Origin: Kineococcus sp. NBC_00420
GTDB taxonomy: Bacteria > Actinomycetota > Actinomycetes > Actinomycetales > Kineococcaceae
Assembly: GCF_036021035.1 (NCBI RefSeq)
Contig: NZ_CP107930.1
Span: forward strand, 4,154,001 to 4,218,000
Direction: 5' to 3'
DNA: 64,000 nucleotides
Positions 10,984 to 33,569 of this stretch are shown piece after piece (the stretch's first letter is position 1; each line of letters starts with the position of its first letter). The translations under genes were made by a program, and so were the position numbers. The notes under the pieces are model-generated. The model saw only the letters and a program-made list of their open reading frames with translations. It was not told where the DNA came from and searched no databases.

Positions 10984-11755
10984 GTTCCTCCGTTCAGGCC
11001 CCGGTGACCCAGGACAGCGAACCATCCTACGCAACCCCGGCAGGTGGTGCGGGCACGAGACGTGGCGCACAGGTCGGGACCGCGGGACGTGCGTCGTCCC
11101 CGTGGTCGAGCAGTCGACCGTTTCCCGATCCGCGCCGCGGGCCGGCAAAGCCCCGACACCTCGGCGGACACCCCGTACCCCGACTTCGTCGCGGTGGCAC
11201 TCAGCGAGAACCTCCAGGCCGCCGTGCAGTACTCGTGGACGGGACCGCGCCGTCGAGGGCGAACCGGAGCCGGGTGATGAGTTCCCGGGTCTGCGTCGAG
11301 GGTTCACCCTGCAGGCCTCTCCTCCACCCGCCCCCGGTCCGTGCTCACCGACCGCCGTGGCGCGGGTCGTCCGCGGTGTTCAGGGGCACGAGGTCGGCGC
11401 TGCCCCCCGTGGTCGGTGGTGGCCCCGGAGACGAAGCCGAGCACCCCGACGACCAGGGGCGCCATCGACACGGGGGAACGGTGGACGGAAAGACGGAGGT
11501 CGTGGTTCGGGTCGCGCTCGTGGGGTTCTCCGGACGCGGAGCCGGAACTCCGAGGGAGGCGTCCGCCGTGCGTTCGACCTGGTTCCACGCCACGTCGCGG
11601 TTCCAGATGCGCTCGGCCGGAGCAGGGGGGAAGGTTCATCGTGATCGCGCTTCGCGATCGCCGGTGGAGCAGCGCGCCGAACGCCCGACGGGCGGGCGCT
11701 CTCACGTGCCCGCCTGGATCCCGGTTCGACACCAGGTCTCAGGAGAGGTACGACG
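10984..11755. other. 772-bp stretch without a convincing intact gene
   Basis: This spacer between the LOV phosphatase (minus) and the next plus-strand gene has short protein-like pieces in several frames, for example a hydrophobic run PLVVGVLGFVSGATTD on the minus strand near 11410-11460 and PLNTADDPRHGGR in a different minus frame near 11345-11390. No frame gives a continuous gene with a start, ribosome site and consistent codon use. It looks like decayed coding DNA plus promoter sequence, but I cannot name the original gene. Confidence 0.4.
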
Positions 11756-18689: not shown

Positions 18690-18735
18690 GGCCTGACACC
18701 TGCTGCACCGCAGCCGAACACCTCCATTCCAGGGG

Positions 18736-18795
18736 TTGCGCGCCCCCGGTGTGGAGTGCTAGAAAAACCGTGTCCGGATCGGTCGAACCGATCCG
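18736..18795 (+). promoter_or_regulatory. hsp20 promoter region with CIRCE-like half-site and inverted repeat
   Basis: TTGCGC (18736-18741) and TAGAAA (18760-18765), 18 bases apart, resemble a primary-sigma promoter. GAGTGCTAG at 18754-18762 matches one arm of the HrcA/CIRCE consensus, but the other arm nine bases upstream does not. Downstream, CGGATCGGT-CGA-ACCGATCCG (18775-18795) is a perfect 9-bp inverted repeat that would lie at the start of the transcript, where it could act as an operator or as an RNA hairpin. Confidence 0.5.
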
Positions 18796-18845
18796 TCGAC
18801 GGTTGGCAGCGCATCTGGTTCTCGAGAGACCCGGAGGTGGTGGAC

Positions 18846-19265
18846 ATGCTGATGCGCACTGATCCCTTCCGAGAGTTCGACCGCCTGGCCCAGCAGGTGC
18901 TGGGGACGACGGCCCGGCCCGCGGCGATGCCGATGGACGCCTGGCGCGACGGCGACGAGTTCGTGATCGAGTTCGACCTGCCGGGGGTGGATCCGGCGTC
19001 CGTCGACCTCGACGTGGAGCGCAACGTGCTGACGGTGCGGGCGCAGCGACCGGTGTCGGAGGGCACGGGCGAGATGCTCGCCGCGGAGCGCCCACGGGGC
19101 GTCTTCAGCCGGCAGCTGATCCTCGGCGACAACCTCGACACCGAGCGGATCGAGGCCGCCTACCGCGGCGGCGTCCTGCGTCTGCGCATCCCGGTCGCGG
19201 AGCGGGCGAAACCGCGACGCATCGAGATCGCGACCGAGGACGACCAGCACGCCCTCACCTCCTGA
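18846..19265 (+). CDS. hsp20: Hsp20/alpha-crystallin small heat-shock protein
   Basis: A 139-residue small heat-shock protein. The alpha-crystallin domain is complete: [30 protein letters not shown], then [18 protein letters not shown], and the closing [20 protein letters not shown]. It is an ATP-independent holdase chaperone. GGAGG seven bases upstream sets ATG 18846. The preceding 110 bases hold a promoter-like sequence and inverted repeat. A short acidic ORF follows 11 bp later, then a strong terminator. Confidence 0.95.
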
Positions 19266-19276
19266 GGGGGGTTCCC

Positions 19277-19555
19277 GTGGACACTGCGATGCGGGGGAGC
19301 GACGACGCCTTCGCCGCCGTGGTCTCCCTCCTGCAGGAGTGGGTCGACGCGGAGTTCGCGGCGGTGGTCGCCACCTGGGACGAGGACGACGGCGACGACA
19401 TCGGCGGGCACGGTTGCCGCTGCGTGACGGGCGCCGCCCCGGAACCGGGTGGGACCGACCGCGGCGCGGGCGAGGATCACCGTCACCCCCACGCCGTCGA
19501 CGCGGGAGAGCGTGCTCTACCCGGGCGGCGGGTGCGCTCTCCTCCGTGCTGCTGA
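19277..19555 (+). CDS. small acidic hypothetical protein
   Basis: A 92-residue frame with GTG start right after a G-rich ribosome site. The first half, VSLLQEWVDAEFAAVVATWD then an acidic EDDGDD stretch, has gene-like codon use. The second half is low-complexity and rich in Arg, Gly and Pro, so the 3-prime end may be frameshifted or non-coding. It lies between hsp20 and a terminator and would be in the same transcript. Not recognised. Confidence 0.4.
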   Translation: MDTAMRGSDDAFAAVVSLLQEWVDAEFAAVVATWDEDDGDDIGGHGCRCVTGAAPEPGGTDRGAGEDHRHPHAVDAGERALPGRRVRSPPCC

Positions 19556-19560
19556 ACGCC

Positions 19561-19598
19561 CGGGTCCGTCCCGTTCCGTGAGGGGCGGGACGGACCCG
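19561..19598. terminator. bidirectional stem-loop terminator
   Basis: CGGGTCCGTCCCG and its exact complement CGGGACGGACCCG form a 13-bp stem around a 12-base loop, between the hsp20 transcript and the convergent GGDEF-EAL gene. No U-tract is visible. Confidence 0.8.
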
Positions 19599-19615
19599 AG
19601 CGTGCCGTGGCCGAA

Positions 19616-21937
19616 CTAGCGTTCGGCGCCGACGACCCGCTGCGTGAGCCACGTGTCGAACTCGTCGGCGGGCAGCGGACGGGCGTGCAGGTAGCCCTGT
19701 GTCTCGTCGCAGGCGAGCGCCGCGAGCGCTGCGAGGGTGGCTTCGTCCTCCACCCCCTCGGCGACGACCCGGAGCTGCAGGGCGTGCGCCAGGTTGATGG
19801 TGTTGGCCACGATGGCCGCGGCGCGCGGGTCGCTGAGCAGGTCCATGGTGAAGGACCGGTCCAGTTTGAGTTCGCTGACGGGCAGTTGTCGCAGCTGGGT
19901 CAGGGAGGAGTAACCGGTTCCGAAGTCGTCGATGCTGACCTGCGCTCCCAGCGCCCGCAGACCTTCGACGACGGAGAGGCTCCGTTCCGGCTCGCGCAGC
20001 AACGCCGTCTCGGTGACCTCCAGGACCAGTGAGGTGGCGGGGACGCGGTGGTGGGTCAGCAGCGCGTTCACGGTCGCGGGGAGGGAGGTGTCCAGCAGGG
20101 TTCCCGCGGCGAGGTTCACGGAGACCCGGACGTGCAGGCCCTCACGGTGCCAGCGGGCCTGCTGGGCCACGGCCTGCTCGAGCACCTCGCGGGTCAGGGC
20201 GTCCATCAGCGCGTGCGACTCCGCCAGGGGGAGGAACCGTCCCGGCATCAGCAGGCCCAGGACCGGGTGCTGCCAGCGCACCAGCGCTTCCACGCCGGCC
20301 AGTTCTCCTGTCGTCGCGACGAGTTGCGGCTGGTAGTGCAGGCGCAGTTGTCCTCCGGTGATCCCCTGGCGCAGGTCGGCCACCATGGACAGCAGGCCCC
20401 GGGTCTCGCCGTGGCGGGCGGAGTCGTAGGTGGTGCAGCGCAGGTCGTTCCGTTTCGCGTCGTACATCGCGGTGTCGGCCCGGCGCAGCAGCATCGCGGC
20501 GTCGACGGATCCCTCGCCACCGGGGGAGTCCGACGTCGGCCAGTGCGCCCGTCCGACGCTGAGGTCCACGTGCACGCTCATCCCGGCGAGGTGGAAGGGT
20601 TCTGCGAAGGCCTCGTCGAGCGCGCCCAGCACCGCCTCGCCCTGCGCCCCCGCGTTGCTGACGATGGCGAACTCGTCACCGCCGAGTCGACCGAGCACCG
20701 TCGCCGCCGGGAGGGCGGGTTGCACGCGTTGGGCGACCATGCGCAGCAGGTCGTCACCGGCGCTGTGGCCCAGTCCGTCGTTGACCTCCTTGAAGTGGTC
20801 GAGGTCGAAGACCACCACCTGGAGGCCCGGCTCACGGGTCCCGGGGTGGGCCAGGGTGTGGTCCAGCTGCCGCACGATCGCGCGGCGGTTGGCGATGCCG
20901 GTCAGGTCGTCGGTCAGGGCCTCCTCCCGGCTCGCGGCCAGTTGGGCGAGTTCTCCCGTGTTGACCAGCAGGCGGACGCTGGAACCCAGGACACCCGCCA
21001 GGCCGACGACGGCCAGGATGCCGGGAGCGCCGGTGGCGACGACCGTGACGGCGGTGCCGAGACCTGCGAGGACGACGACGAAGGACCCGACGGTGGACTT
21101 CACCGGGTCCGAGGACTGGGTCGGCACGAACCGCACCGGGAGGATCGCCGCCGTGGACAGGGCCAGCAGACCCAGGGCCCACACCGGGAGGGACCAGGCC
21201 GGGCGGGTGACGCCAGCTCCGACGAGGGCGGCGAGGCCCCCGGCGCCGGCCAGCAGGTACGCGGCGGTCACCAGCCACAACCGGACGTCGCGGTAGAGCC
21301 GTCCGGTGAAGGCGGCGGTCAGCGCGGCCACCACCAGGACGATCACCGCGGAGTCCTGCACGAGGAGCACCTGCCGGAGCCCGGGGAGCGACGTGAGCAG
21401 CCCCCCTCCCGCGGCGTGTCCCTGGGGTGTGGTCCAGACCAGCACGCTGCCCAGGACGGCGGTCGCGACGAGGAGCGACGCGCACCCGTTGAGGAGGTCG
21501 TCGGGGTCGACGCCGGACCCGTGCCGGCTCCACCGGACCAGGGCCCGGTAGGCCAGCGGGAAGGTCAGGACCCCGCAGACCCCGGCCGGCACCTCGGCCA
21601 GCGGAGCGGTCCGGGGGACGATCGCGACGACGACGGTGACGACCGCGCCCATGCCGTAGAGGAGGCAGCCGAGGCTGAACATCCGCCAGACCGACCGTTC
21701 GGCGGTGGCCCGGCGGGCCCGCCACCGCACGATCCACCAGGTGGCGGCCAACGCCGTGAAGGACAGCGGGAGCGCCAGTGCGGACCGCACGCCGGCCGGG
21801 TCGGGCCCGGAGACGGTGAGGAACAACCCGATCGCGGAGACGGCGAGCACCCCCAGGGCCCCTCGGGGCAGGACCGTCCTCCGGAGGGAGGCGAGGGCAC
21901 CCGGGCGCGAGGACGGCACGTTGTCACTTCGGCTCAC
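19616..21937 (-). CDS. membrane-anchored GGDEF-EAL c-di-GMP enzyme
   Basis: About 773 residues. The N-terminal 330 residues carry eight or nine transmembrane helices without a recognisable sensor signature. A GGDEF domain follows (LTDDLTGIANRRAI, FDLDHFKEVND, GRLGGDEFAIV) and then a full EAL domain (GVEALVRWQHP, VNLAAGTLL, EVTETALL, IDDFGTGYSSL, SELKLDRSF, VVAEGVEDE). Both active-site motifs are intact, so it may make and hydrolyse c-di-GMP. I prefer GTG 21937, with AGGTGGG upstream, over a TTG at 22015. It is divergent from the tandem-GAF MCP-like gene. Confidence 0.92.
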   Translation of the reverse strand: MSRSDNVPSSRPGALASLRRTVLPRGALGVLAVSAIGLFLTVSGPDPAGVRSALALPLSFTALAATWWIVRWRARRATAERSVWRMFSLGCLLYGMGAVVTVVVAIVPRTAPLAEVPAGVCGVLTFPLAYRALVRWSRHGSGVDPDDLLNGCASLLVATAVLGSVLVWTTPQGHAAGGGLLTSLPGLRQVLLVQDSAVIVLVVAALTAAFTGRLYRDVRLWLVTAAYLLAGAGGLAALVGAGVTRPAWSLPVWALGLLALSTAAILPVRFVPTQSSDPVKSTVGSFVVVLAGLGTAVTVVATGAPGILAVVGLAGVLGSSVRLLVNTGELAQLAASREEALTDDLTGIANRRAIVRQLDHTLAHPGTREPGLQVVVFDLDHFKEVNDGLGHSAGDDLLRMVAQRVQPALPAATVLGRLGGDEFAIVSNAGAQGEAVLGALDEAFAEPFHLAGMSVHVDLSVGRAHWPTSDSPGGEGSVDAAMLLRRADTAMYDAKRNDLRCTTYDSARHGETRGLLSMVADLRQGITGGQLRLHYQPQLVATTGELAGVEALVRWQHPVLGLLMPGRFLPLAESHALMDALTREVLEQAVAQQARWHREGLHVRVSVNLAAGTLLDTSLPATVNALLTHHRVPATSLVLEVTETALLREPERSLSVVEGLRALGAQVSIDDFGTGYSSLTQLRQLPVSELKLDRSFTMDLLSDPRAAAIVANTINLAHALQLRVVAEGVEDEATLAALAALACDETQGYLHARPLPADEFDTWLTQRVVGAER

Positions 21938-22090
21938 CGGGGGGCCCACCTGAGACCCACCGTCCGTCGGAGGGTGGAGTTCCCCCGGCCGGGTGAACGT
22001 GCGTGAATCGTTCAAGGGGCGTCGTCGCGGTTCCGATGCTCGGACGATCCACTACGTGGTGGGCGTCACCTGCAGAGGAGCCTCGACACC

Positions 22091-23689
22091 GTGTTCACGA
22101 ACCCGCGACCGCAGCCGACCCGGAGGGGGAAGGCCGCCACGATCGCGGCGCTGACCCGTTCCGCGACCGACAGCGCTGCCGACGTCGAGGCGATCACCGA
22201 GGTGCTGCGCGCCCTCTCGACGGTCACTTCCCCGCAGGAGGCGGTCCGCATCGCGTTGGACACGGTGCGCGACCGGTTCGGCTGGGCCTACGGCTCCTGT
22301 TGGACGCTGGAGGCCGACGGTGACCGTGGGGAAGGTGTGCTGCGCTTCGCCCAGGAGTCCGGCGACGTCGGCGCGGAGTTCCGGGAGATCTCCTCGGTGG
22401 CGTCCTTCGCCGAGGGCGAGGGGTTGCCGGGGAGGGCGTGGCGTGCCCGCGACCTGGTCTTCGTGGCGGACCTGGCGCAGGTTCCCGACTGCGTCCGCGC
22501 CCCGGCCGCGCAACGAGGCGGGGTGAGGTCCGGGGTGTGCTTCCCGATCGTCGAGCAGGGCCGCGTGGTGGCCACCATGGACTTCTTCACCACCGAGGAG
22601 CTGGTCCCGTCACCGGGCCGGCTGGCCTCGTTGCGGGCGGTCGGTGTCCTGGTCTCCGGTGCTCTCGAACGTGCCCACGAGACGGTGCGGCAGGAAAAGG
22701 CGACCCAGGACGTCGACGCGGTCTCCGCCGTCGTCCGCGAGCTGACGACGGCTCGCGACGAGCAGACGGCGCTGCGCACCGCCCTGGCGACGATCCGGCG
22801 CGAGTTCGACTGGCAGTACGGGTCCTTCTGGCGCCTGGACGAGTCCGATCAGCGGAAACCGGTCCTGCGGTTCGAGCTGGAGTCCGGCGACGCCGGGGAG
22901 GAGTTCCGCGCGGTGACCCTGTCCGCGTCCTTCGCCCGGGGCGTCGGCTTGTCGGGCCGGACCTGGGCCGCGCAGGACCTGGTCTTCGTCGAGGACCTGG
23001 GTGAGATGACCGACTGCGTCCGCGCCCCGGCCGCGCAACGTGCCGGGGTGAGGTCGGGGGTGTGCCTGCCCGTCCTCGTCGGGGGTCGCGTGGTCGGGAC
23101 CATGGACTTCTTCGCCACCCGCACCCTCGTCATGTCCTCGAGCCGGGAGAGCGCCCTGCGCAACACCGCGTTCCTGGTCGGTCAGGCGATGGAGCGCTTC
23201 GCCGCCGGCACCCGGTTGCACGACGCGGGTGGGGAGCTGCTGTCCTCGATCGCGGAGGTGGAGCGCAACGTCACCTCCGCCGCGGGGGTCGCCGCCCGGG
23301 GGGAGGCGCTGGCCACGGAGGCCAACGACCAGGTCGCGGCGTTGGGGCGGGCCAGCGCGGAGATCGACGAGGTGGTGCGGGCGATCCAGTCGATCGCCGC
23401 CCAGACGAAGCTGCTGGCCCTGAACGCCTCGATCGAGGCGGCCCGAGCTGGGGAGGCCGGCAAGGGTTTCGCCGTCGTGGCGAGCGAGGTGAAGGAACTC
23501 TCCGGCCAGACCGAGCGCGCCACCGACGACGTGGCGACGAAGGTCGCCACCATCCAGGACCGGGTCGCGGCCGTGGTCACCTCGTTGGCCGGCATCCACG
23601 CCGCGGTGGAGGAGATCAACCAGACCCAGTCCCTCATCGGTGGCGTCCTCACCGAGCAGGAAACGACCACCCGCGCCGTCCTGGCCTGA
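22091..23689 (+). CDS. soluble tandem-GAF methyl-accepting chemotaxis-like protein
   Basis: A 532-residue protein without transmembrane segments. Two GAF domains (about 30-200 and 210-370) are near copies: both contain WAYGS/WQYGS, RFxx[18 protein letters not shown] or its equivalent, and [17 protein letters not shown]. The C-terminal third is a short MCP signalling hairpin with [20 protein letters not shown] and [20 protein letters not shown] precedes the GTG at 22091. It probably relays an intracellular signal to a CheA-type kinase or acts in a non-chemotactic array. No che genes are in the window. Confidence 0.9.
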
Positions 23690-23717: not shown

Positions 23718-24299
23718 TCAGCGCGTCGCGAGGACGACGGCCACGGTAGCGAGGACCGCGCCGACGCCGGTACCGGCGACGACCTGGGCGGGGGAGTGGG
23801 CCTGGACGCGCACCCGGGCCAGGGCGACGAGCGGGACGGCGAGGAGGACGGGGAACCACACGGGGAAGAAGCCGACGACCACGACGGCGGAGGCCGTCGC
23901 GACCATCGCGTGCAGCGAGATCTTCCAGAACCTGGACACGGCGAAACCCACGAGGGCGCAGGACGTCATCAGGCCCAGGAGGACGAGCGAGGCCGGGGAG
24001 GCGTCGATCAGGACGAGCAGCCCGGCGGTGAGGACGGTCAGGCCGGCCACCATCGCCATGAGCTTCGGTCGGTCCTCGCGGTTGCGGACGTGGTGGTCCT
24101 CGTAGCGTCCGCGACGGACCCCGACCGCGACGACGGCGTAGGGCACGACCGCGCAGACCAGGGTGACGAGGAGTCCCGTGAGGACCCCGCGCCAGAGCGG
24201 GGTGGTCGTGGCGGCGGCGATGAGGACGGGCATGACCGCGGCCAGGACCCAGGGCGCGAGGACCTCGCTGACGACCACGGCCCAGCGCGTCGTGCTCAT
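23718..24299 (-). CDS. PAP2-like membrane protein with a degenerate active site
   Basis: About 193 residues with five or six hydrophobic helices. Its layout resembles PAP2-type phosphatases: RNREDRP after the second helix, ISLHAMVAT in place of the PSGH motif, and QAHSPAQVVAG where SRxxxxxHxxxD is expected. The two C-terminal motifs are only partly conserved, so catalysis is uncertain. ATG 24299 is the likely start; a GTG two codons upstream is possible. It is convergent with the MCP-like gene. Confidence 0.7.
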   Translation of the reverse strand: MSTTRWAVVVSEVLAPWVLAAVMPVLIAAATTTPLWRGVLTGLLVTLVCAVVPYAVVAVGVRRGRYEDHHVRNREDRPKLMAMVAGLTVLTAGLLVLIDASPASLVLLGLMTSCALVGFAVSRFWKISLHAMVATASAVVVVGFFPVWFPVLLAVPLVALARVRVQAHSPAQVVAGTGVGAVLATVAVVLATR

Positions 24300-24348
24300 C
24301 GTCACCGGTCCCCTGCCTCGTCGTGCGAGTCCCCGTGGAGCGCTCGTG

Positions 24349-24747
24349 TCAGGCGATGTCCCCGACGCGCAGAGCTCGGGTGATCGACTGGGCGGTGCTC
24401 GACGTCCCGTACCAACGGCGGGCCTGACGGAGGTGCGCCGACACGGCGGCGAGGTCCAGTCGCAGGGCAGCCGCTGCCTCGGAGGCCGAAGCGCCCTGGC
24501 AGATCAACTGCAGGATCGTCGACTGGAGGACCGGCGGAGGTGTGGCGTGGGCGCCGCTCTGCTCGCGCAGGCCCCACTCCGGTGCGACGGTCGGCGACGT
24601 CAGGCACTCGATGGCCAGGTGGTCGTCGACGACCTGGATCCCTCCGTCCCGGTGCACCCGCCGGATCAGTCGGCTCACGTAGGGCCGGGCGGCGGGGTCG
24701 ATCTCGGTGACGCGCTCGAGGTGACGAGGGGCGTCCTCGGGGTCCAT
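24349..24747 (-). CDS. short LuxR-type helix-turn-helix protein
   Basis: A 132-residue protein. The C-terminal half looks like a LuxR/GerE helix-turn-helix: STILQLICQGASASEAAAAL and LDLAAVSAHLRQARRWYG. The N-terminal half is not a receiver domain. GGAGGT seven bases upstream fixes the ATG at 24747. It is followed closely on the same strand by the PAP2-like gene and is divergent from the LacI regulator. Targets unknown. Confidence 0.75.
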   Translation of the reverse strand: MDPEDAPRHLERVTEIDPAARPYVSRLIRRVHRDGGIQVVDDHLAIECLTSPTVAPEWGLREQSGAHATPPPVLQSTILQLICQGASASEAAAALRLDLAAVSAHLRQARRWYGTSSTAQSITRALRVGDIA

Positions 24748-24847
24748 ACGTCCACCTCCGTGGTGGTGCACAGTCTCGGGGCATCCGTGCTCGTGCTCAC
24801 CGTGCGCCGAGCGGTAGGCCGGTGACTACCGTCCCGCCACCGTAGCG

Positions 24848-24861
24848 TGTTTGCGCGAACA
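24848..24861. promoter_or_regulatory. LacI-type operator, probable autoregulatory site
   Basis: TGTTTGCGCGAACA, a near-perfect 14-bp palindrome (12 of 14 positions) with the central GCGC typical of LacI/GalR-family operators, sits directly in front of the LacI-family gene and touches its first possible ATG. Autorepression is the simplest reading. The overlap also argues that translation starts further downstream. Confidence 0.55.
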
Positions 24862-25994
24862 TGAACACGGACTCCTCCCCACCTCTTCAGCCTCCGGGTG
24901 GCAGCATGGCCGTCGTGCCCCCGCCCGGATCCGAGGAGAGTGCCCCCGTGCCGGGCGCAGCGCCCGCGAGCCGCCGCCGCCGACCGAGCATGGCCGACGT
25001 CGCCACTGTGGCCGGGGTGTCGGCCCAGACGGTGTCGCGGGTCTCCAACGGCCGCGAGAACGTCGACCCCCAGACGCGGGAGAGGGTGCGCGAGGCCATG
25101 GCCGCCCTCGGCTACCGCGCCAACTCCGCCGCCCGGTCCCTCGCGACCGGATCCTTCCGCAGCATCGGAGTCATCGCTTCGACGTTGACCACGTTCGGGG
25201 CGCAGCAGGCCCTGGACGGGGTGGCCGACGAGGCCCGCCGGTTGGGGTACGACGTGATGCTGATGCCGCTGAAGGCACCGTCGCCCGAGGAGATCAGCGG
25301 AGCGGCCGACGTCATGTCGGGCCGCCACAACGTCGACGCCATCGTGGTCTGCGTCGAGTCCGGGGTGGTGGAGTCCCTCTTCGGCGGGCTCCACGTCGAC
25401 GTCCCGATCGTCGTGACGGACGGCGGCGCCCGACATCCCCGCTTCACCACGGTCGACAGCGATCCCGAGCCCGGACTCCGAGCAGCCCTGACCCACCTGA
25501 TCTCCGGCGGGCACACCCGCATCTGGCACGCCGGCGGACCACCGGACTCCCACAGTGCGATCCACCGCCGCCAGATCTGGGAACAGGTGCTGCGCGAGCA
25601 CGGACTCCCGGCGCAGACCTGCCTCCTGACGAACTGGTCCAGCGAGTCCGGTCACGCCGCAGGACTCCTCGTGGGCGCGGCGACTCCCCGACCGACCGCG
25701 GTGGTGTGCGCCAACGACCAGACCGCCCTGGGGCTGATCCGGGCCCTGACCGACCTGGGGGTGCGGGTACCCGACGACGTCAGCGTGGTCGGCTTCGACG
25801 ACGTCGAAGCCGCACGGTTCTCGGTACCCCGGCTGAGCACCGTCCGTCACGACATCCAGGAGGTCGGCCGCCGGGCGGTCAGGACCCTCATCCAAGAACT
25901 GTCCCCGGGGACCGAGGTCGGTCCGCTCGGGCTGGTCCCCTCGGTGTTCGTCGACCGCGAGAGCACCGCGCCGCTGACCGGTCCGAACCTCTGA
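24861..25994 (+). CDS. LacI/GalR family transcriptional regulator
   Basis: Up to 377 residues. The DNA-binding domain is MADVATVAGVSAQTVSRV with the following hinge helix region (SAARSLATG). The periplasmic-binding-protein-like sensor domain has SIGVIAST, ISGGHTRIWHAGG, VVCANDQTALGLI and DDVSVVGFDD. The ATG at 24861 has no ribosome site and lies on the operator; GTG 24948, preceded by GAGGAG nine bases upstream, gives a more normal N-terminus of 11 residues before the helix-turn-helix. No sugar transport or catabolic operon is adjacent, so its regulon lies elsewhere. It borders the decayed accessory segment. Confidence 0.92.
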   Translation: MNTDSSPPLQPPGGSMAVVPPPGSEESAPVPGAAPASRRRRPSMADVATVAGVSAQTVSRVSNGRENVDPQTRERVREAMAALGYRANSAARSLATGSFRSIGVIASTLTTFGAQQALDGVADEARRLGYDVMLMPLKAPSPEEISGAADVMSGRHNVDAIVVCVESGVVESLFGGLHVDVPIVVTDGGARHPRFTTVDSDPEPGLRAALTHLISGGHTRIWHAGGPPDSHSAIHRRQIWEQVLREHGLPAQTCLLTNWSSESGHAAGLLVGAATPRPTAVVCANDQTALGLIRALTDLGVRVPDDVSVVGFDDVEAARFSVPRLSTVRHDIQEVGRRAVRTLIQELSPGTEVGPLGLVPSVFVDRESTAPLTGPNL

Positions 25995-26003
25995 CCGGGG
26001 ACG

Positions 26004-26273
26004 TCAGTCGAAGGGGAGGACGTCGCTGACGATGACCGCGTACTTCTCCCAGTTCTCGACGGATTTCTCGTGCGCGGTGACGACGCCGTGCCAGACGCCC
26101 TTGCGCCGCTGGGCCAGGACCGCGTAGAACCCGATGACCATCGTGCCGACGACGACGTGGTCCCCGCTGATGATGTTCACGACCTCCGCACTGACCTCGA
26201 CCCAGGAGTTCGAGGCCGGGCCGGTGATGTGGATCGATCTCTTGACGTTCTCTTCGGAGGTTTCGTGGTGCGC
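26004..26273 (-). pseudogene. conserved-looking 90-codon frame without a start codon
   Basis: The minus strand reads open from after a TGA at 26276-26274 to a TGA at 26006-26004 with strongly gene-like codon use. It contains SIHITGPASNSWVEVSAEVV, GDHVVVGTMVIGFYAVLA and KGVWHGVVTAHEKSVENW. No ATG, GTG or TTG occurs before the middle of the frame, so the 5-prime end has been lost by frameshift or deletion, or a non-canonical start is used. I do not recognise the family; the hydrophobic centre suggests one membrane segment. Confidence 0.5.
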
Positions 26274-26350
26274 TCACTCGCGAAGAGTTCGCCCGAGGGT
26301 TCGTCGTGCGCCCGAACGGTTCAGGTCCACTACCTTCGCGTAGACGGGGT

Positions 26351-26725
26351 TCAGGAACGCATACCGGTGCGGACGGCGAGGGAGACGAGTTGTGCACGCT
26401 CGCGGGCACCGACCTTGGTCATGGCGCGGTTCGCGTACGTCTTCACCGCGAACGGAGGACGAAGAAACGGACCACGATCTCGGTGTTGTCCAGCCCGGTG
26501 ACGATGGCCTTGACCACCTCGAGTTCGCGGGCGGTGAGTCGTTCGAAGCGGACGGAGACCTCCGGGTCGCCGGGAACGGGGGGTGCGGTCGGCGACGTGT
26601 TCGACCAGGGCGGTGGCGGCCGGGTGCGACAGCGCCTTGTTTCCGTCGTGCAGACCGAGGATCCCGTCCGTGGGCCAGCTCGCGCACACGGACGATGATG
26701 CTGCCGAGGGGAAGATGGCCGACAC
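26351..26725 (-). pseudogene. NarL/LuxR-type response regulator, C-terminal remnant with frameshifts
   Basis: The end of a response regulator is spread over different minus-strand frames: DGNKALSHPAATALVEHVAD, then in a second frame RFERLTARELEVVKAIVTG and LDNTEIVVRFF, then in a third TYANRAMTKVGARERAQLVS ending at 26351. Joined, they reproduce the standard GerE helix-turn-helix with its preceding linker, but at least two frame changes separate them. The receiver domain is missing. Confidence 0.75.
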
Positions 26726-26738
26726 TCAATGCCTAACC

Positions 26739-29069
26739 TCAGTCATCACCGTTCGCTTCGAGTTCGACACCACTGTCCGATCCGTCGACGGCTTCCCCGA
26801 TCTCAGGGCCGGACGAAACGACGGGTCCGTCGTCGGGCAACTTCGGCGCTGGAGGGACCCACGCGCGCAGCGGCTGCACCACCGTGGTGTAGAAGTTCTC
26901 CAACCCGTCGGTGACCGAGGGGATGAACGCGTTCTTGACTCCCGATCGTTTCGTGCCCATGGCACTCGTGCGCGACAGGGTGAATGCGGCCACCTCGACG
27001 TCACGTTCAGGGAGGAGGGCAGCGGGTTTGTCCCGCACGTCACCCAGGCGTTCGCAGGTGGAACCGCTGCGCGCAGCGAAACTGACATCCACCAGGACGT
27101 CATCGGGAGCGTCTTTGAGCTGCCGCAGCAGCCAGGCGACACGACGCTGCGCTCCACCCTCCTGAGGTGCCTGCACGCGCACACTGGTGCGCACCTGACT
27201 CGTCCGCAGGTCGGCCACCACGGTCAGAGGTCCCGCAGCACCCGGCACCCGGACCGTGGCCTCCAGCTCGCCGGAGCTGACCAGCCGAGCAGTCGTCGCA
27301 GCGATCCGAGCGACGGGATCGGTGGCGACCTTGCGCGGCAGCACGTGGGTGACTGTCACTCCCAGTTCCGCGGTCAGTCGCAACCGCAGTTGACGCACCA
27401 GCCTGATCCAGGCCTCTGCCACTGCAGGCACCTTGCGATCACCGGTGCGCAGGGTTCCCGCCGAAACCGCTTCTCGGACCCCGACCCATGCCGAGCCCAT
27501 GTCCTCGAAGCCGGACGCACCGGATCGCGGGTGCTGAAGGTAGCGGATCAGTTCGTGCAGCAGCCAGGCCTGCAAGGGATCCGCCACGCCCCGGTGGATC
27601 AGTGCCATCTGCGCCTCGTGCAGCACTTCGGCCCAGGAGATGTGGTGCAGGGCGACCTTGCGCAGTTTGCGCTTGTCGACCTCGACCGGGTGTTCGCCCG
27701 CGGCTGGGGGGATGTCGTTGGAGAGGGTGATGACGGCATCGAATCCTTGCGCGCGGGCCACGTCGAGGTAGTTCTCGACCTGGTCCCGGCGCAGTTGTCC
27801 ATCACCGGTCTTGACTTCGACGAGGCCCGTCCAGGTCTTACCGGCACGGGCCACGCGCAAGACCCCGTCTGGGTAGACGCGCGTTTCGCCGAGGTCGAAG
27901 GGAACCTCCAGGTACGCCTCGACTGCGCCGCCGGGAGCTCCGAAGTGGGAGACGACCGCACGGGCGAAGGACCGCACACCCATCATCGTGGCCAGCACCG
28001 CGGAGGTGGCGCGCTTCTCCTGCTCCCCGGCGCTGCCGACGCCGTAGATGGAGAACACGCGAGCCGGTTGCCAGGTGTCGGCTCCAGCCAGGCGCAACGC
28101 GGGCGGCCTGGCGGCTACCGTCGCGACCTTGCGGGTCTGCACTCCCTTGCGGGAGGGCTGCGGCCGGCGGGGAACCGTGCCGACGACTGGTGCAGGCGTC
28201 TCGACGGCGATCGACGGTTGCCGGTCCTCACCGACGCGCACCGTCACGGTCGCGACGACGGGGGCTGACACCTCAGGGAGTCGGAGCCCTGCCACCTCTT
28301 CCTCGCCCGGGGCGGCCGGGGGCACCTGGGAAGGCTCTGCTTCGAGACCTGAGACGACACGGTCGACCTCGTCGACGACCTCGACCAGGTCGTCACCCGG
28401 GGCCTGGGGTGGGATCGCGGCACTCTCGGTCCTGTCGGTCGTACCGTCGGCCCCTTCGCCTTCGACAGCAGGCGAGGAAGGCGGGGCCGGTCGATGCCCT
28501 GTCTCCTCGTCGGGCTCGTCCTCGTCGGGCTCATCGCTGACGGAGACGCCGAAGTCCTGCGCCAGTCCTGCCAGCCCGCTGTCCCAGCCCTGGGCCACCG
28601 TGCGGATCTTCCAGGTGCCCGAGCGGCGGTAGACCTCGGCGAACACGAACGCGGTTTCGTTGCCGGCGTCGTCGATGTCGCACACGGTGAGGATGGTGTT
28701 CGCCGCATCGAGGAGGAGCAGGCGCAGCCCGGAGAGTTCTCCGAAGGTGCCGGTGGAGCGACTGGCGGCGATCGCGATGACTTCCACCTCGCCGCTGAGC
28801 TCGTCCAGGTCGATGGAGAGTCGTTCCTCGACGGTGTCCTCGGACTGCGCCCGGCCGGTGTGACGGACTGCCCCGTCGCCGGACGCAGGTTGGTTGTAGA
28901 AGACGAAGTCGGCATCCGAACGCACGCGCCGCGCGCCGGTGAGCAGGAGGGCCGATGCGTCGACGTCGGCTTCGTGATCGGTTTCGCGCCAGCTGACCAC
29001 TACCCGCAGGCGACGTGCCTCGGTGGGCAGGGTGCGGTTGGCTCCGCGGGGCAGTGACAGGTCTTCCAC
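26739..29069 (-). CDS. TerD-domain protein fused to a PD-(D/E)XK nuclease-like domain
   Basis: About 776 residues. The N-terminal 180 residues are a TerD domain: LSLPRGANRTLP, then SDADFVFYNQPASGDGAV with RHTG, the acidic Ca-binding loops, and AFVFAEVYRRSGTWKIRTVAQGW. An acidic Pro-rich linker runs to about 330. A nuclease-like core lies near 370-450: AYLEVPFDLGE, RVYPDGVLRV and TGLVEVKTGDGQLRRDQVEN, the E...PDG...ExK...Q arrangement of PD-(D/E)XK enzymes. A helical region and acidic tail complete it. TerD proteins act in tellurite, phage and stress resistance. The GTG at 29069 has no ribosome site. Divergent membrane-protein genes lie 260 bp away. The nuclease call is motif-based inference. 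Confidence 0.8.
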   Translation of the reverse strand: MEDLSLPRGANRTLPTEARRLRVVVSWRETDHEADVDASALLLTGARRVRSDADFVFYNQPASGDGAVRHTGRAQSEDTVEERLSIDLDELSGEVEVIAIAASRSTGTFGELSGLRLLLLDAANTILTVCDIDDAGNETAFVFAEVYRRSGTWKIRTVAQGWDSGLAGLAQDFGVSVSDEPDEDEPDEETGHRPAPPSSPAVEGEGADGTTDRTESAAIPPQAPGDDLVEVVDEVDRVVSGLEAEPSQVPPAAPGEEEVAGLRLPEVSAPVVATVTVRVGEDRQPSIAVETPAPVVGTVPRRPQPSRKGVQTRKVATVAARPPALRLAGADTWQPARVFSIYGVGSAGEQEKRATSAVLATMMGVRSFARAVVSHFGAPGGAVEAYLEVPFDLGETRVYPDGVLRVARAGKTWTGLVEVKTGDGQLRRDQVENYLDVARAQGFDAVITLSNDIPPAAGEHPVEVDKRKLRKVALHHISWAEVLHEAQMALIHRGVADPLQAWLLHELIRYLQHPRSGASGFEDMGSAWVGVREAVSAGTLRTGDRKVPAVAEAWIRLVRQLRLRLTAELGVTVTHVLPRKVATDPVARIAATTARLVSSGELEATVRVPGAAGPLTVVADLRTSQVRTSVRVQAPQEGGAQRRVAWLLRQLKDAPDDVLVDVSFAARSGSTCERLGDVRDKPAALLPERDVEVAAFTLSRTSAMGTKRSGVKNAFIPSVTDGLENFYTTVVQPLRAWVPPAPKLPDDGPVVSSGPEIGEAVDGSDSGVELEANGDD

Positions 29070-29331
29070 ACCACGAGTCTGCCCACTTTCGGCGTCCGGT
29101 ACAGGTGTTCTCGTGGATCGGTGGCGGTCGTGCTTCCGGAGCCACGCCCTCAGGCGGGAGCGTGACGGTACCTCCGGTCTGCTGCGCCGTCGGCCCGAGG
29201 CGAAGCACGCAGGGTGACGATTCTTTGTGAATTGGTAGCCCTGTGTCATCAGTCGAGGCATGCTGGGACTTGGCCTGGTCCGGAGTGGGGCACCAGGGCA
29301 CGGGAGCGAACGCACTGATCTGGAGGACGTC

Positions 29332-30351
29332 GTGGGCATCGCCTGGGTCGAGGCGGTCCGGCTGGCGCGTGCCAACCGCAGCCAGCACGAAGAGCTCGAA
29401 GATCGACACGCCGCCCTGATCACCCGTGCGGAGCGCGAGCGCCAGGCACAGGAACGGCGTCGTCGGGAGGTCTACGAGGAGGTCCTGGTGCCTTTCCGCG
29501 ACGTCTTCGCGCGGCTGAAGAACGTCGACCTCGTCGAGCTGGCCGGCATCGACCTGCCCACCGCCGGACGCACCCCCCAGGTGGAGGTCACCCAGGTCCG
29601 TTTGAACGCCCTGCACACCGTCGGGGCGCTCGCCGGGGGGCTGGGCGTGGGAGCGGGAGCGGGGGTCACCGCCTTCGCCACCGTCGGTGCGTTCGCGGCG
29701 GCCTCCACCGGGACGGCCATCTCCGGACTGTCGGGTGCGGCTGCCACCAGCGCCACCCTGGCGGCCCTGGGGGGAGGCTCTCTGGCGGCCGGTGGTGGTG
29801 GGGTCGCGGCCGGCACCCTCGTGCTGGGCAGCTTGGTCGCGGCGCCGGTGGTGCTGGCCACGGTCGGCGTGGTGGCCTGGCAGGGGCGCCGCCAGCGCCG
29901 CCTGCAGCGTCGAGGGGCGGAGGACCTCGACCAGGCCGACATCGAGCTGAGCCGAGCGGAGGAGGACACCGACGCGGTCATCCGTCGCAGTCGGGCGGTC
30001 CGCAATCTGCTCACCGACCTCCAGGCCGAGGCTGCCCAGCGTCTCGAGGACTTGCGGGTCCTCGTCGACACCGAGACCGACTACGCCGCCTACCCCCCGG
30101 CCCGACGGGCGCAGGTGGCGACGACGGTGTCGTTGATGACGACGACGATCTCCGTGATGGCCACCCCGCTCGCGGACGAGAACGGAGTGGTGACCGTCCT
30201 GTCGGGCAGGGTGGTCGAGGACGCCCGAGAGCGACTGCAGGACCTGGTCGAGGAGGATGCCGCGACCGCGGACGACCCCGTCGACACCGGCGCGAGCGCC
30301 AGTAGGGGTGCTGAGGCGGACGAGTCCACGAGCTCGGTGGTGTCGGCGTGA
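29332..30351 (+). CDS. coiled-coil membrane protein with a glycine-rich core
   Basis: About 339 residues (363 if the ATG at 29260 is used; GGAGG five bases before GTG 29332 favours the shorter form). An N-terminal charged helix (ERERQAQERRRREVYEEV) is followed by a long Gly/Ala-rich hydrophobic stretch at about residues 95-185 (GALAGGLGVGAGAGVTAF, LAALGGGSLAAGGGGVAAG, LVLGSLVAAPVVLATVGVV), a second charged coiled coil and an acidic tail. It overlaps the next gene by four bases. The architecture suggests a membrane-inserting or membrane-anchored partner of the TerD-nuclease protein. Not a family I recognise. Confidence 0.75.
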   Translation: MGIAWVEAVRLARANRSQHEELEDRHAALITRAERERQAQERRRREVYEEVLVPFRDVFARLKNVDLVELAGIDLPTAGRTPQVEVTQVRLNALHTVGALAGGLGVGAGAGVTAFATVGAFAAASTGTAISGLSGAAATSATLAALGGGSLAAGGGGVAAGTLVLGSLVAAPVVLATVGVVAWQGRRQRRLQRRGAEDLDQADIELSRAEEDTDAVIRRSRAVRNLLTDLQAEAAQRLEDLRVLVDTETDYAAYPPARRAQVATTVSLMTTTISVMATPLADENGVVTVLSGRVVEDARERLQDLVEEDAATADDPVDTGASASRGAEADESTSSVVSA

Positions 30352-31952
30352 GCGAGCAGGCGGCCGACGAACCCCAGAAGAGCTCTGAGCTTCCTCCGCG
30401 CGTCGATGGGGCGGGATTCGACTCCTCGGAGTCCCGTGAGCCCGATGCGTCTCGGGCACCCGGGGCCGCGACGAAGGTGGGGGTTCAGGCGGCGGCCTGG
30501 GCACTGGTGAACGCTGCAACCCGCCGCCATGCCGCCCAGACCGCGGAAGCCCTGCGCATCCGTGAACTCGCCGAGCAAGTCGCACAGCGGTACCGCAACG
30601 TCGGCCTGCCCCAGCGTGCCGGGCACCTCTTCGAGGTCATGCACGAAGCGACGTTCAACCACGACGCCATCGCCGAAGGCTCGAAGATCCGCGCCTCCAC
30701 GACCGAGTGGGTCGCTGGCGGGTCGCAGAGCGCCCCGGCAGACCTGCACCTCAGAGACGAAGGTGGACGGCTGCTGGCTGCGGCCCAGGCGAAGCTGATG
30801 GGGAAGGCGACGACCGCCGCGAGCGGCATCTCTCACGAGCGCTACACCGGCCAGCAGCGCCTCATTGGCAGCGACAAGCTCACCGCCGTGGAGAACCTGC
30901 TCGACCGGCGTCTGCGCATGAACCCGGAGGGCTTGAAGTTCGACGACTACGTCGATGCCCGTGCCCACGTCACCGACACCCTGCACATCGACACCACCGA
31001 CGCCGCCGGGCACGTCACCACCGTGCACAGCCGCCCGGTGTCCACCGAGCAGGCCCACCGCGCCGCCCGCAACCCCTCCGGCTGGGGCGGCAAGCACGCC
31101 GCTTCCGTCGCCTCCCGTGAAGTCGGCGCGGCGATGGCGGTCGGGGCAGCCACCGGGGCCGCTGTCGCGGGTCTGATGGAGGCTGCGAGTCAGGTCGCGC
31201 GAGTCCGCGCGGGAGAAACCACCGCTGCTGCCGCCGCCGCGACCGCCGCTGGGGCCGCGGCGATGGGGGCGGTGCGCTCCGCCGCCGGAGCGGGGCTGGG
31301 CAAGGCCATCGGCATCGCCGCCCGAACTGGGGTCCTGCCCGCTGCCTTCGGCCAGGCCTCCGCACCCGCGGCGATGGCCGGCGCCGTCGGCGACATCACC
31401 GCCGCCGGTGTCGCCTTCGCCCGCCGCGACATCGACGCCGGCGAGCTTGCCGCACGCTGCTGCGACTCTGCGCTGCGCGCGACGCTGGTCGGGGTGTGCA
31501 GCGGGCTGGGGCAGACGGTGATCCCCGTGCCGGTCGTCGGGGGTCTCGTGGGGGCGGTGGTGGGTCAGGCCGCAGCAACCCTCATCAGCCAGGGTCTGCG
31601 GGCCGCGGTGGCCGTGGCCCGCGCCGAACTCGCCGCCGGGGAGGACATCGACGAGGAGGACCTCGCCGCCCTGGAGGACGAGACCGCCTCTGCGCTCGCC
31701 ACGGCGATGCTGCTCGCGGAGTCTGAGCGGGCACTGGGGGAGGAGCACGGTGCCAACGTCATCGCCACCGTCAGCCCGCTGCTCGAGGAGGCCTTGATCG
31801 CCGTGACCAGCGGCGACCCGGACGAGGCACAGGAACGGCTCGCCGAGGTCGCGCGCTGCTTCAACGGCCAACCGCTTTTCGTGACGTCGGACGAGTTCGA
31901 GGAGTGGATGGCGGATCCCCTGACGGCGTTGACGATGAACCCCAACTGGTAG
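30348..31952 (+). CDS. large Gly/Ala-rich membrane protein with a possible nuclease-like domain
   Basis: A 534-residue protein starting at a GTG that overlaps the previous stop. Residues about 85-215 form a soluble domain: GHLFEVMHEATFN, SAPADLHLRDEGGRLLAAAQ followed by AKLM, and ERYTGQQRLIGSDKL. The E...D...QxK order recalls PD-(D/E)XK/Mrr-type cores with Gln replacing the second acid. Residues 260-430 are glycine-zipper-like hydrophobic segments (MAVGAATGAAVAGLMEAA, AAGAAAMGAVRSAAGAG, VVGGLVGAVVGQAAATL). The tail is acidic. It forms an operon with the previous membrane protein, opposite the TerD-nuclease gene. Function unknown; the nuclease suggestion is weak inference. Confidence 0.7.
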   Translation: MSEQAADEPQKSSELPPRVDGAGFDSSESREPDASRAPGAATKVGVQAAAWALVNAATRRHAAQTAEALRIRELAEQVAQRYRNVGLPQRAGHLFEVMHEATFNHDAIAEGSKIRASTTEWVAGGSQSAPADLHLRDEGGRLLAAAQAKLMGKATTAASGISHERYTGQQRLIGSDKLTAVENLLDRRLRMNPEGLKFDDYVDARAHVTDTLHIDTTDAAGHVTTVHSRPVSTEQAHRAARNPSGWGGKHAASVASREVGAAMAVGAATGAAVAGLMEAASQVARVRAGETTAAAAAATAAGAAAMGAVRSAAGAGLGKAIGIAARTGVLPAAFGQASAPAAMAGAVGDITAAGVAFARRDIDAGELAARCCDSALRATLVGVCSGLGQTVIPVPVVGGLVGAVVGQAAATLISQGLRAAVAVARAELAAGEDIDEEDLAALEDETASALATAMLLAESERALGEEHGANVIATVSPLLEEALIAVTSGDPDEAQERLAEVARCFNGQPLFVTSDEFEEWMADPLTALTMNPNW

Positions 31953-31959
31953 CGACTCC

Positions 31960-32244
31960 TGTCGACCCGGTTGCCTGCCCGTCCAACTCGTCGGAAGTCG
32001 TGAGCGGGTTGCCTCGTGAGCTGGGCGTGCCCGGGGCGGAGCAGGTGTCGGTCACCCTGGCCCAGGACGAGAGCGAGGCGCGCGGCGTCGCCTTCACCGG
32101 AGAGCTGGCGGCCCGCCTGGACGAACGGCGGTACGAGGACGGGTTCGGCCCCACGCCACAGTGTTCCAGCACCTGTCGCTGCGGTCCCAGCGCAGCGACC
32201 GGAAACTGCGTGACGTCGCCGCCGACGTCGTGGCCAACCTCTGA
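31960..32244 (+). pseudogene. GAF-ANTAR regulator remnant with an internal deletion
   Basis: The first part, LGVPGAEQVSVTLAQ and ELAARLDERRYEDGFGP, matches the GAF domain of actinobacterial GAF-ANTAR proteins (usual form LDERQYxxGxGPC). It then changes frame into FQHLSLRSQRSDRKLRDVAA, which resembles the end of such proteins, closing at a TGA at 32242-32244. The middle of the gene is missing. No start codon or ribosome site is evident. It follows the membrane-protein operon directly. Confidence 0.65.
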
Positions 32245-32289
32245 AACCCGGTTCGAGGGCGGCTCTCCCGAACCCGTGCACACCCCTGT

Positions 32290-33366
32290 TCACCGGGGAA
32301 AGGCGTGGCGACGGGCGACGATGGTGGCGACCGCGGCGGGAACCACGACGGCGAGGGAGACCCACGACAGCGAGCCGACGCCGAAGTTCCCGATGAGGGC
32401 ACCCCCGACGACCGCGCCGGCACCGATCATGAGGTTCACGAGGGTGACCATCACCGCTGCGATGGAACCGGATCCGGCGGCCCGGAAACCCGCGGTGAGG
32501 AACCACGTCGCCCCGCCGCCGAAACCCAGGCCCCACAGCGCCGCCGCGAGGTACACCAGCACCGGACCGACCGTCGCGAAACCGAGGGCGAGGAACGCGG
32601 TGGCGAGCAGCAGCACGCCGGCGACGGTGAGGTGACGGTGACGGCGGTCGATCCACACCCCGGTGACGAGGATGCTCGCGAAGGCGGCGACGCCGAACGT
32701 CAGCAGGACCCACTCGACCTGGCTCGCGATGCCGGCTTCGTCGACCACGGGGGCGATGCAGGTGCAGAGGACGTGGTGGGCCAGGAAGGAACCGCCCATC
32801 ACGGCGAGGATCGTGAACACCCCGGGAGTTCCCCGGAGGACTTCACGGCGTGCGCGTTCCTCGCGCGGCGGCCGGGTGGCGACGACGCCCGGCAGTCCGG
32901 GGAGCGCGATCAGGACCCAGACGATGGTCGCCACACCGGCGAGATCGGTGGCGGCGGAGGTGGAGTGCCTGCTGGTCATGGTGCCCAGCAAGGTTCCGAG
33001 GGGGAGTTCGAGCGACAGGGCCACGGGGGTTCCCGCGTTCGCGATCGACATCGCTCGCCCCTGCTTCGACGGCGAAGTCGTCGGTCACGGCGATGACGAG
33101 GTCGGCGACCACGAAGGCCACCAACCCGGTCAGGGGGACGGTTGCGCGGTTCCACCGCCGGAGGGCGGCGCTCGGGGGATGGCGCTGACCGCGGTCGCGA
33201 GGGCGTAGACCGTGACCGTCCGGCCCGCGACCGCCTCGGTCACGTCCAGGGATCTGGCGATGTCGGGCAGGAGGCCGGCGGGGACCTCGAGGCCCGGTTC
33301 CCGGGCCTGCTGGCCGCGGTCTTCGCCGGGGGGGTCGACAGGCGAGGTGCTCCCGTCCTGATCGCA
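32290..33366 (-). pseudogene. MFS transporter (drug/arabinose efflux type), frameshifted and truncated
   Basis: The C-terminal 250 residues are intact from about 33051 (SIANAGTPVALSLELPLG, TPGVFTILAVMGGSFLAHH, WGLGFGGGATWFLTAGFR). N-terminal pieces are in other frames: GLLPDIARSLDV with AVAGRTVTVYALATAVSA (about 33180-33280) and TGLVAFVVADLVIAVTDDF (about 33070-33140). Roughly 50 residues between the last two pieces and the first transmembrane segment are missing. An internal ATG at 33051 could give a truncated product, which is unlikely to transport. Confidence 0.75.
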
Positions 33367-33429
33367 TGATCTGCGTCACACGAACCGCGAACCGCGGCTC
33401 GCGCCGCTGGGTGGGGGGAGAACGACAAA

Positions 33430-33459
33430 GGATCCCGGCTCCGTGGGGAGCCGAGATCC
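33430..33459 (-). terminator. terminator downstream of tRNA-Lys
   Basis: On the minus strand a stem with GGATC and GGCTCC arms around a short loop is followed by CTTTGTCGTT, a partial U-tract. It lies 38 bases past the 3-prime end of tRNA-Lys. Confidence 0.65.
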
Positions 33460-33496
33460 TGTGCTGCAGAGGACGATCCCTGCAGATAGAGCCGAG

Positions 33497-33569
<73 letters not shown>

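What the first reader, a model, noticed from the sequence alone, without database searches (positions are those of the whole stretch)
26739..31952. Divergent cassette of TerD-nuclease fusion and two glycine-zipper membrane proteins
A TerD domain is fused through an acidic linker to a segment with the PD-(D/E)XK order E...PDG...ExK...Q. About 260 bp away, on the other strand, two overlapping genes encode Gly/Ala-rich membrane proteins, the second with an E...D...QxK soluble domain. Ter proteins are known for tellurite, phage and colicin resistance, and nuclease plus membrane effector is a common defence layout. Decayed genes on both sides and tRNA-Lys at the edge fit a variable locus. I know of no described system with this exact composition.
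Basis: partly seen in the sequence, partly recalled or inferred. Interest (0 to 1): 0.78.

Follow-up and report, generated by a model that had tools for sequence, protein, structure and literature searches.

The report
Two neighbouring nuclease cassettes, not one
A stress-sensor domain joined to a probable DNA-cutting domain, and next to it a separate two-gene candidate anti-virus cassette, sit together at a variable chromosome site in a bacterium related to Kineococcus; relatives show that they move independently, so this is two modules rather than a new three-gene system.

Summary
The genes are real and the motifs are as described, but the trio is not a unit. T (26739-29069, minus) has a strong TerD domain and a ~450-aa module with a conserved E/PD/ExK/Q signature (40 of 40 rows). 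That module occurs in 56 of 394 class genomes; in 40 loci opened, TerD stands before it in 20 and not in 20, and no neighbour is constant. A and B (29260-31952, plus) are a two-gene operon matching PADLOC's candidate defence pair PDC-M09; B has an E...D...QxK probable nuclease domain before its Gly/Ala-rich region. B adjoins A in 10 of 10 loci with a good A match. A and B lie beside T only here; one congener has a B fragment 98 bp from T, another has both on different contigs. The cassettes lie in a ~9.2-kb block absent from the same tRNA-Lys site in two congeners. The same genome has TerD fused to an HNH nuclease and to a T5orf172 domain, so T looks like one of a series; T-type TerD domains lack the acidic loop of ordinary TerD (present in 0 of 21). 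Nuclease fold and defence function are inferred: structure models were poor and profile matches weak.

The parts
26739..29069 (-). T: TerD domain + acidic/Pro linker + PD-(D/E)XK-like module + C-terminal alpha/beta domain (776 aa from GTG)
   Evidence: Pfam TerD E 1.8e-37; full-length relatives in 3 of 12 family genomes, own included; the module in 56 of 394 class genomes
28551..29057 (-). TerD domain of T (residues 6-174 counted from 29072), lacking the GDNxTGxGxGDD loop of ordinary TerD
   Evidence: domain; loop present in 0 of 21 T-type rows and in 3 of 3 single-domain TerD loci of this genome
27558..28094 (-). PD-(D/E)XK-like part of T (about residues 327-505): E389, PDG401-403, ExK419-421, Q431
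   Evidence: conserved in 40 of 40 rows; weak Pfam VRR_NUC matches in 6 of 41 members, best E 0.008, lying over the PD-ExK-Q stretch in four members shown
26862..27500 (-). C-terminal alpha/beta domain of T (residues 525-737)
   Evidence: AlphaFold2 with two rows, block pLDDT 60-89 with one block at 47; no Foldseek match at E <= 0.001
29260..30351 (+). A: charged N part + Gly/Ala-rich hydrophobic region; PDC-M09A relative (start may be GTG near 29329)
   Evidence: PADLOC PDC-M09A E 9.3e-23; 7 of 7 rows match
30348..31952 (+). B: E...D...QxK probable nuclease domain + Gly/Ala-rich hydrophobic region; PDC-M09B relative
   Evidence: PADLOC PDC-M09B E 6.5e-8 over 266-430; 6 of 7 rows match; motif invariant in 7 of 7
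33496..33569 (-). tRNA-Lys (CTT): edge of the variable site
24290..33493 (.). block absent from the same tRNA-Lys site in congeners G002 and G004
   Evidence: homology ends at the tRNA and resumes at 24289 and 24269, 131 and 159 bp from the tRNA in those relatives

Best explanation
Two independent mobile modules lie side by side at a tRNA-Lys variable site. Module 1 is T, a single-gene switch: an N-terminal TerD domain that has lost the acidic loop of ordinary TerD senses a stress or infection signal (in the published Ter model a nucleoside-like metabolite) and releases a metal-dependent PD-(D/E)XK DNase, with the C-terminal domain giving DNA or partner binding. It is one of a series in which the same kind of TerD domain is joined to different nucleases. 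Module 2 is A+B, a nuclease-bearing relative of the PADLOC candidate PDC-M09: B holds a QxK-type nuclease domain next to a glycine-zipper region, A is its constant partner, and together they would cut incoming DNA at, or permeabilise, the membrane during phage or plasmid entry. Shown: TerD identity, conservation of the motifs, A-B linkage, independence of T from A-B, variability of the site. Inferred: nuclease fold and activity, signal, membrane insertion, defence role.
For: TerD match. Motif kept in 40 of 40 rows. Weak matches of homologues to two REase-fold Pfam families over the motif stretch: VRR_NUC (best E 0.008, 6 of 41) and Tox-REase-7 (E 0.13 and 0.27 in 2 of 10 scanned). Profile-profile T-module against Mrr_cat E 0.0028, the best of ten pairs, ExK aligned with QxK, but probability only 11%. 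In this genome TerD is also fused to T5orf172/MUG113 and to HNH, and in congener G008 to an RNase_T-type exonuclease. Tree: TerD-fused and other modules separate with one change, weak support 65/68. A/B: PDC-M09 profiles; B beside A in 10 of 10 loci where A matched over at least 110 residues at 43% or more. Independence. Site. Mobile and defence-rich settings: the module on 11 Rhodococcus and Streptomyces plasmid records and on one IMG/VR contig; B homologues on two Deinococcus plasmids, one in an island with DISARM genes, one beside AbiEi/AbiEii genes.
Against: No homology or fold result reaches significance for the nuclease: the T model is below pLDDT 50 in that half, B's whole model has mean 37, no convincing PDB sequence match outside TerD, none for B; B against Mrr_cat has E 0.02 and probability 2.3%, and T's and B's modules show no likeness to each other (E 0.69). 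B's QxK is a variant motif. The module was not found in 50,697 phage records, and B relatives not in IMG/VR. The module without TerD looks vertically inherited in one family (L119, L120, L122-L124 share neighbours), which fits a housekeeping role better than defence. In G009 a B remnant lies 98 bp from T, a hint that the neighbourhood may not be pure chance. Only 41 of 56 module loci, own included, were looked at.
Confidence: 0.62

Rival explanations
1. T, A and B are one three-gene defence system: TerD senses, T cuts DNA, A/B act at the membrane.
For: Divergent layout with a short gap in the window; in congener G009 a fragment of B (residues 400-534) ends 98 bp upstream of T's open frame on the same strand.
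Against: No A or B at E <= 1e-3 in the 40 class loci opened, stretches of 6 to 17 kb around the module, nor beside T in G007; G007 has A/B and T on different contigs; G002, G003 and G010 have A with B but no full-length T; of six class genomes with strong A/B, only G000 and G396 have the module, in G396 over 7 Mb apart along the contig.
Confidence: 0.08
2. T is a chromosomal stress or DNA-repair nuclease, not a defence effector; TerD ties it to oxidative, metal or DNA damage.
For: Ter proteins are linked to stress (recalled). The module without TerD sits in shared gene order in five loci of one family. No constant defence neighbour. No match in phage records.
Against: Patchy in the own family set (full-length in 3 of 12), with different neighbours in each of the three species, on large plasmids and on a phage-like contig.
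Confidence: 0.3
3. The PD-(D/E)XK-like part of T is a catalytically inactive DNA-binding or scaffold domain, or another fold with a chance motif.
For: No significant profile match; the nuclease half of the model is unreliable.
Against: The catalytic-type positions are kept in 40 of 40 rows that span them, down to 30% identity, which a dead domain would not need.
Confidence: 0.12
4. A/B is an anti-bacterial toxin pair or a plasmid-conflict module rather than an anti-phage one; B is a delivered nuclease toxin.
For: Glycine zippers and nuclease domains also occur in toxins (recalled). No immunity gene was sought.
Against: No secretion-type domain in the Pfam scan of 7 B rows; candidate defence profiles match both genes; a B homologue lies in a DISARM-containing island.
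Confidence: 0.08

Closest known systems
PADLOC candidate defence system PDC-M09 (A and B)
   Same: Both proteins match the profiles; two adjacent genes.
   Different: B's match covers only its hydrophobic region (profile 245-405 of 480); whether the reference B carries the same E...D...QxK domain could not be seen. Candidates of this kind are called unpublished in PMC11811056 (passages read); a search for 'PDC-M09' gave 0 papers.
Ter stress/anti-phage systems (TerD family; Anantharaman, Iyer and Aravind 2012, not held, recalled)
   Same: A true TerD domain. TerD is described as a possible sensor of nucleotide-like ligands in PMC7159879 and PMC7824862 (passages read).
   Different: No Ter family among ten window neighbours scanned; the GDNxTGxGxGDD loop is missing.
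TerD fused to T5orf172/MUG113, HNH, TerF-type vWA (this genome) or to an RNase_T-type exonuclease (congener G008)
   Same: TerD joined to other, mostly nuclease-type, domains; the loop pattern is not found in these loci either.
   Different: T carries a PD-(D/E)XK-like module that no Pfam or NCBIfam model recognised with confidence.
PD-(D/E)XK nucleases of the Mrr and VRR-NUC kinds
   Same: Order E...PD...ExK...Q in T, E...D...QxK in B; weak matches over the motif stretch.
   Different: No match above a family cut-off was seen; VRR_NUC itself was not found at E <= 0.001 in 148 class genomes.

Membership tests
PDC-M09 (PADLOC candidate) | A-component profile match | tested here: met
   E 9.3e-23; 7 of 7 rows
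PDC-M09 (PADLOC candidate) | B-component profile match | tested here: met
   E 6.5e-8 over the hydrophobic region only; 6 of 7 rows. PADLOC's own coverage cut-offs were not applied
PDC-M09 (PADLOC candidate) | A and B adjacent | tested here: met
   10 of 10 loci with a good A match; seven weaker A relatives (L069-L075) had no B by tblastn
PDC-M09 (PADLOC candidate) | protects against phage | not testable with these tools
   bench test needed; candidates of this series are called unpublished in the passages read
TerD family | TerD domain above the Pfam cut-off | tested here: met
   129.1 bits against 25.3
TerD family | acidic GDNxTGxGxGDD loop of single-domain TerD (its role in calcium binding is recalled) | tested here: not met
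   present in 0 of 21 T-type rows; in 3 of 3 single-domain TerD loci of this genome
Ter system | other ter genes alongside | tested here: not met
   apart from the module gene itself, no gene cluster recurs in more than 8 of the 43 neighbourhoods; ten window neighbours gave no Ter family
PD-(D/E)XK superfamily (T) | catalytic signature conserved | tested here: met
   40 of 40 rows
PD-(D/E)XK superfamily (T) | significant profile match to a member family | tested here: inconclusive
   best VRR_NUC E 0.008 in a homologue, bits not shown; four others 12.3-13.3 bits against a cut-off of 23.8; Mrr_cat probability 11%
PD-(D/E)XK superfamily (T) | alpha-beta-beta-beta-alpha-beta core | tested here: inconclusive
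   the order of predicted elements fits by eye but pLDDT is under 50
PD-(D/E)XK superfamily (B) | catalytic signature conserved | tested here: met
   E96, D132, Q147, K149 in 7 of 7 rows; QxK variant
PD-(D/E)XK superfamily (B) | profile or fold support | tested here: inconclusive
   Mrr_cat probability 2.3%, though D and QxK align; model mean pLDDT 37
one three-gene system | the three genes travel together | tested here: not met

The most novel reading that the evidence does not exclude
A loop-less form of the TerD domain is a common signal-sensing cap that actinobacteria attach to interchangeable nucleases (PD-(D/E)XK as in T, HNH, T5orf172-type, exonuclease), giving a class of single-gene, ligand-gated DNA-cutting immunity or stress effectors; several members of the class coexist in this one genome.
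Probability: 0.3. Interest if true: 0.7.

Novelty: new variant of a known kind. Interest (0 to 1): 0.42.

Why it matters
The T module is a widespread actinobacterial family (56 of 394 genomes) that no Pfam model recognised with confidence, and the pattern of TerD joined to several nuclease types in one genome gives a direct way to test what TerD senses: the readout would be DNA cleavage. The A/B pair gives the PDC-M09 candidate a testable catalytic residue (B K149). Against that, the headline of a new three-gene defence system falls away.

Tried and rejected
Single three-gene system: rejected by the co-occurrence survey. Constant partner of T: none found by clustering the genes of 42 loci plus the window; the largest other cluster, ABC-type ATPases, is in 8 of 43 (which printed the 25 largest clusters). 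VRR_NUC members for a profile comparison: none in 148 class genomes; Mrr_cat members were used instead. An interferon-ISG12-like reading of A's glycine-rich stretch came to mind from memory; Pfam gave no such match, so it was dropped. Attachment-site repeat: no second exact copy of the last 14 or more bases of tRNA-Lys in the window, and none of ten neighbouring proteins scanned is an integrase. A search of full-length B failed twice on the machine's side.

Rows dropped: L129 and L146 (both have TerD before the module by tblastn; in L146 the two pieces are in different frames) are missing from the 41-row alignment because my gene caller did not return one gene with both; L136 (broken gene) was left out of the tree; 15 of the 56 module genomes were not opened. 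In the Mrr comparison 13 of 28 loci were used; the rest were dropped because my script read the wrong strand, returned nothing or was not judged readable.
Full report
What is there. The window is G000:C1:4154001-4218000 of a 5.43-Mb single-contig genome. The closest named relative found here is Kineococcus rubinsiae, whose contig carries relatives of A (75% in the best segment) and B; that genome appears to be G007, since one search gives identical coordinates for G007 and for the genome of L077. T, A and B are open as described. T has a TerD domain and, after an acidic, Pro-rich linker, a module of about 450 residues. A and B overlap by 4 bases.

T's module. Searching the last 477 residues of T in 394 class genomes finds it in 56, own included. 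I opened 40 of the other 55. By tblastn, 20 of the 40 have TerD just before the module on the same strand (19 in one frame, L146 in two) and 20 do not. A 41-row alignment (window, two congeners, 38 of the 40) keeps E389, P401, D402, E419, K421 and Q431 in 40 of 40 rows that reach them. This is the order expected of a PD-(D/E)XK enzyme (recalled). Support from profiles is weak: VRR_NUC in 6 of 41 members with best E 0.008, Tox-REase-7 at E 0.13 and 0.27 in 2 of 10 members, Mrr_cat by hhalign E 0.0028 with 11% probability, where pairs not expected to be related gave E 0.05 to 0.6; T's and B's modules gave E 0.69 against each other. NCBIfam gave no family for T and PDB sequences matched the TerD part only with confidence. 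The structure model has the expected order of elements by eye but pLDDT below 50 in that half; the C-terminal domain (525-737) is modelled better and has no significant relative. I therefore call the nuclease likely, not shown.

TerD and its companions. The own genome has seven TerD places. In the three loci with a single-domain TerD (by length) the loop GDNxTGxGxGDD is found; in the four fusion loci it is not. The fusions are T, TerD-DUF4041-T5orf172/MUG113, TerD-HNH and TerD-vWA (TerF type); congener G008 has an RNase_T-type exonuclease followed by TerD. None of the 21 T-type rows has the loop, while 18 of 21 keep a DxDx[SA] motif. For loci the pattern scan covered all frames, not only the TerD gene. 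That the loop binds calcium is recalled, not tested. The Ter literature that I could read in passages treats TerD as a possible sensor of nucleotide-like ligands (PMC7159879; PMC7824862) and mentions a TerD-dependent anti-phage system (PMC3710099). The primary paper (Anantharaman 2012) is not held, so I cannot say that the T architecture is unreported. Papers holding TerD with REase: 3, in all of which I read the TerD passages; none of these passages describes this fusion. Papers holding TerD with HNH and GIY-YIG: 2, seen as a listing only.

A and B. PADLOC profiles for PDC-M09A and PDC-M09B match A (E 9.3e-23) and B (E 6.5e-8), and 7 of 7 and 6 of 7 aligned rows, window included. B's first 255 residues hold invariant E96, D132 and Q147-A-K149. 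A Deinococcus homologue on plasmid p96k shows AEVHH...ADL...QVK by eye and sits in an island with DISARM genes, a DUF262/DUF1524 protein and a protein annotated TerD family, although Pfam found no TerD in that protein. A second Deinococcus homologue lies beside AbiEi/AbiEii genes. A matches only three plasmid records, each in part. A was found in 14 of 394 class genomes and in 5 of 12 distinct genomes of the family set (where the 13th handle repeats G007). B lies next to A in 10 of 10 loci where A matched over at least 110 residues at 43% or more: the window, L064-L068, L209-L212; in L211 both are fragments, in L067 B runs off the contig and in L212 A is in two frames. G235 holds only a 92-residue A piece near a contig end, and the seven weaker A relatives L069-L075 have no B by tblastn. 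Some of those weaker ones are followed by a 143-144-residue protein (L070, L071, L073) or joined to a helix-turn-helix region (L074, by eye).

Do they travel together? T occurs in full in G000, G007 and G009 of 12 genomes; A in G000, G002, G003, G007 and G010. G007 has both, on contigs C109 and C27. G009 lacks A but has B residues 400-534 ending 98 bp upstream of T's open frame on the same strand. In the 394-genome sample six genomes have strong A and B (G000, G099, G111, G133, G279, G396); two of these, G000 and G396, have T's module, in G396 over 7 Mb away along the contig. Two more have the module with a weak A (G115) or weak B (G237) match, at other places in the genome. No A or B at E <= 1e-3 lies in the 40 opened module loci; one weak A match (E 0.045, L147) appears at E <= 1. 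So A-B is a unit and T is not part of it.

The site. In 8 of 8 congeners compared, homology to the window's right side runs to 33494-33496, the 3' end of tRNA-Lys, and stops. In G002 and G004 it resumes at window 24289 and 24269, 131 and 159 bp from the tRNA; in G005 at 7312, with 928 bp between. The block from about 24.3 to 33.5 kb is therefore extra at this site relative to G002 and G004 (G002 has its own A/B elsewhere). No second copy of the tRNA end was found in the window, so no recent attachment site is shown.

How it most likely works. T: signal binding by the TerD domain switches on DNA cleavage (signal and gating inferred). A/B: a membrane-associated nuclease pair acting on incoming DNA or the membrane (inferred from domain order and the candidate-defence profiles). 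The main doubt for T is a stress or repair role, favoured by the shared gene order of the TerD-less module in five loci of one family and by its absence from the phage collection.

Verdict. A/B is a new member of a listed candidate; T is a new variant of TerD-nuclease fusions. Interest is moderate, mostly for the TerD-nuclease series.

Noticed in passing
L042:10226-12373 (G000:C1 about 60.2-62.4 kb): TerD fused to DUF4041 and T5orf172/MUG113 domains; the same architecture in congener G010 (L047:7905-10079).
   Followed up: partly
L043:9234-11135 (G000:C1 about 26.2-28.1 kb): TerD fused to a C-terminal HNH endonuclease domain.
   Followed up: partly
L048:8135-9922 (G008): RNase_T-type exonuclease domain followed by TerD; a BRCT-like middle is a guess by eye.
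   Followed up: no
L160:3-1346 (IMG/VR contig, 7032 bp): T-type module cut by the contig start (whether TerD stands before it is not known), beside genes that look like a phage terminase and capsid protein by eye.
   Followed up: no
L161 (Deinococcus sp. AJ005 plasmid p96k, 60000-96101): Defence island: DISARM genes, MmeI, DUF262/DUF1524 protein, B homologue, a protein annotated TerD family, caspase-family protein.
   Followed up: partly
L193:9056-9130 and 11438-11512 (G001): Two tRNA-Lys copies about 2.3 kb apart at the same site, which may mark an insertion in that congener.
   Followed up: no
L040:8601-9062 (G009:C43): A second, partial copy of T's C-terminal module without TerD in G009 (59% over 174 residues).
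   Followed up: no
L070, L071, L073: Proteins with a Gly/Ala-rich core like A's, followed by a 143-144-residue protein; in L073 the genes upstream look BREX-like by eye.
   Followed up: no
window 16428-23689: Two GGDEF/EAL proteins, an Hsp20 and a GAF-MCP signalling protein in the wider stretch left of the cassettes.
   Followed up: no
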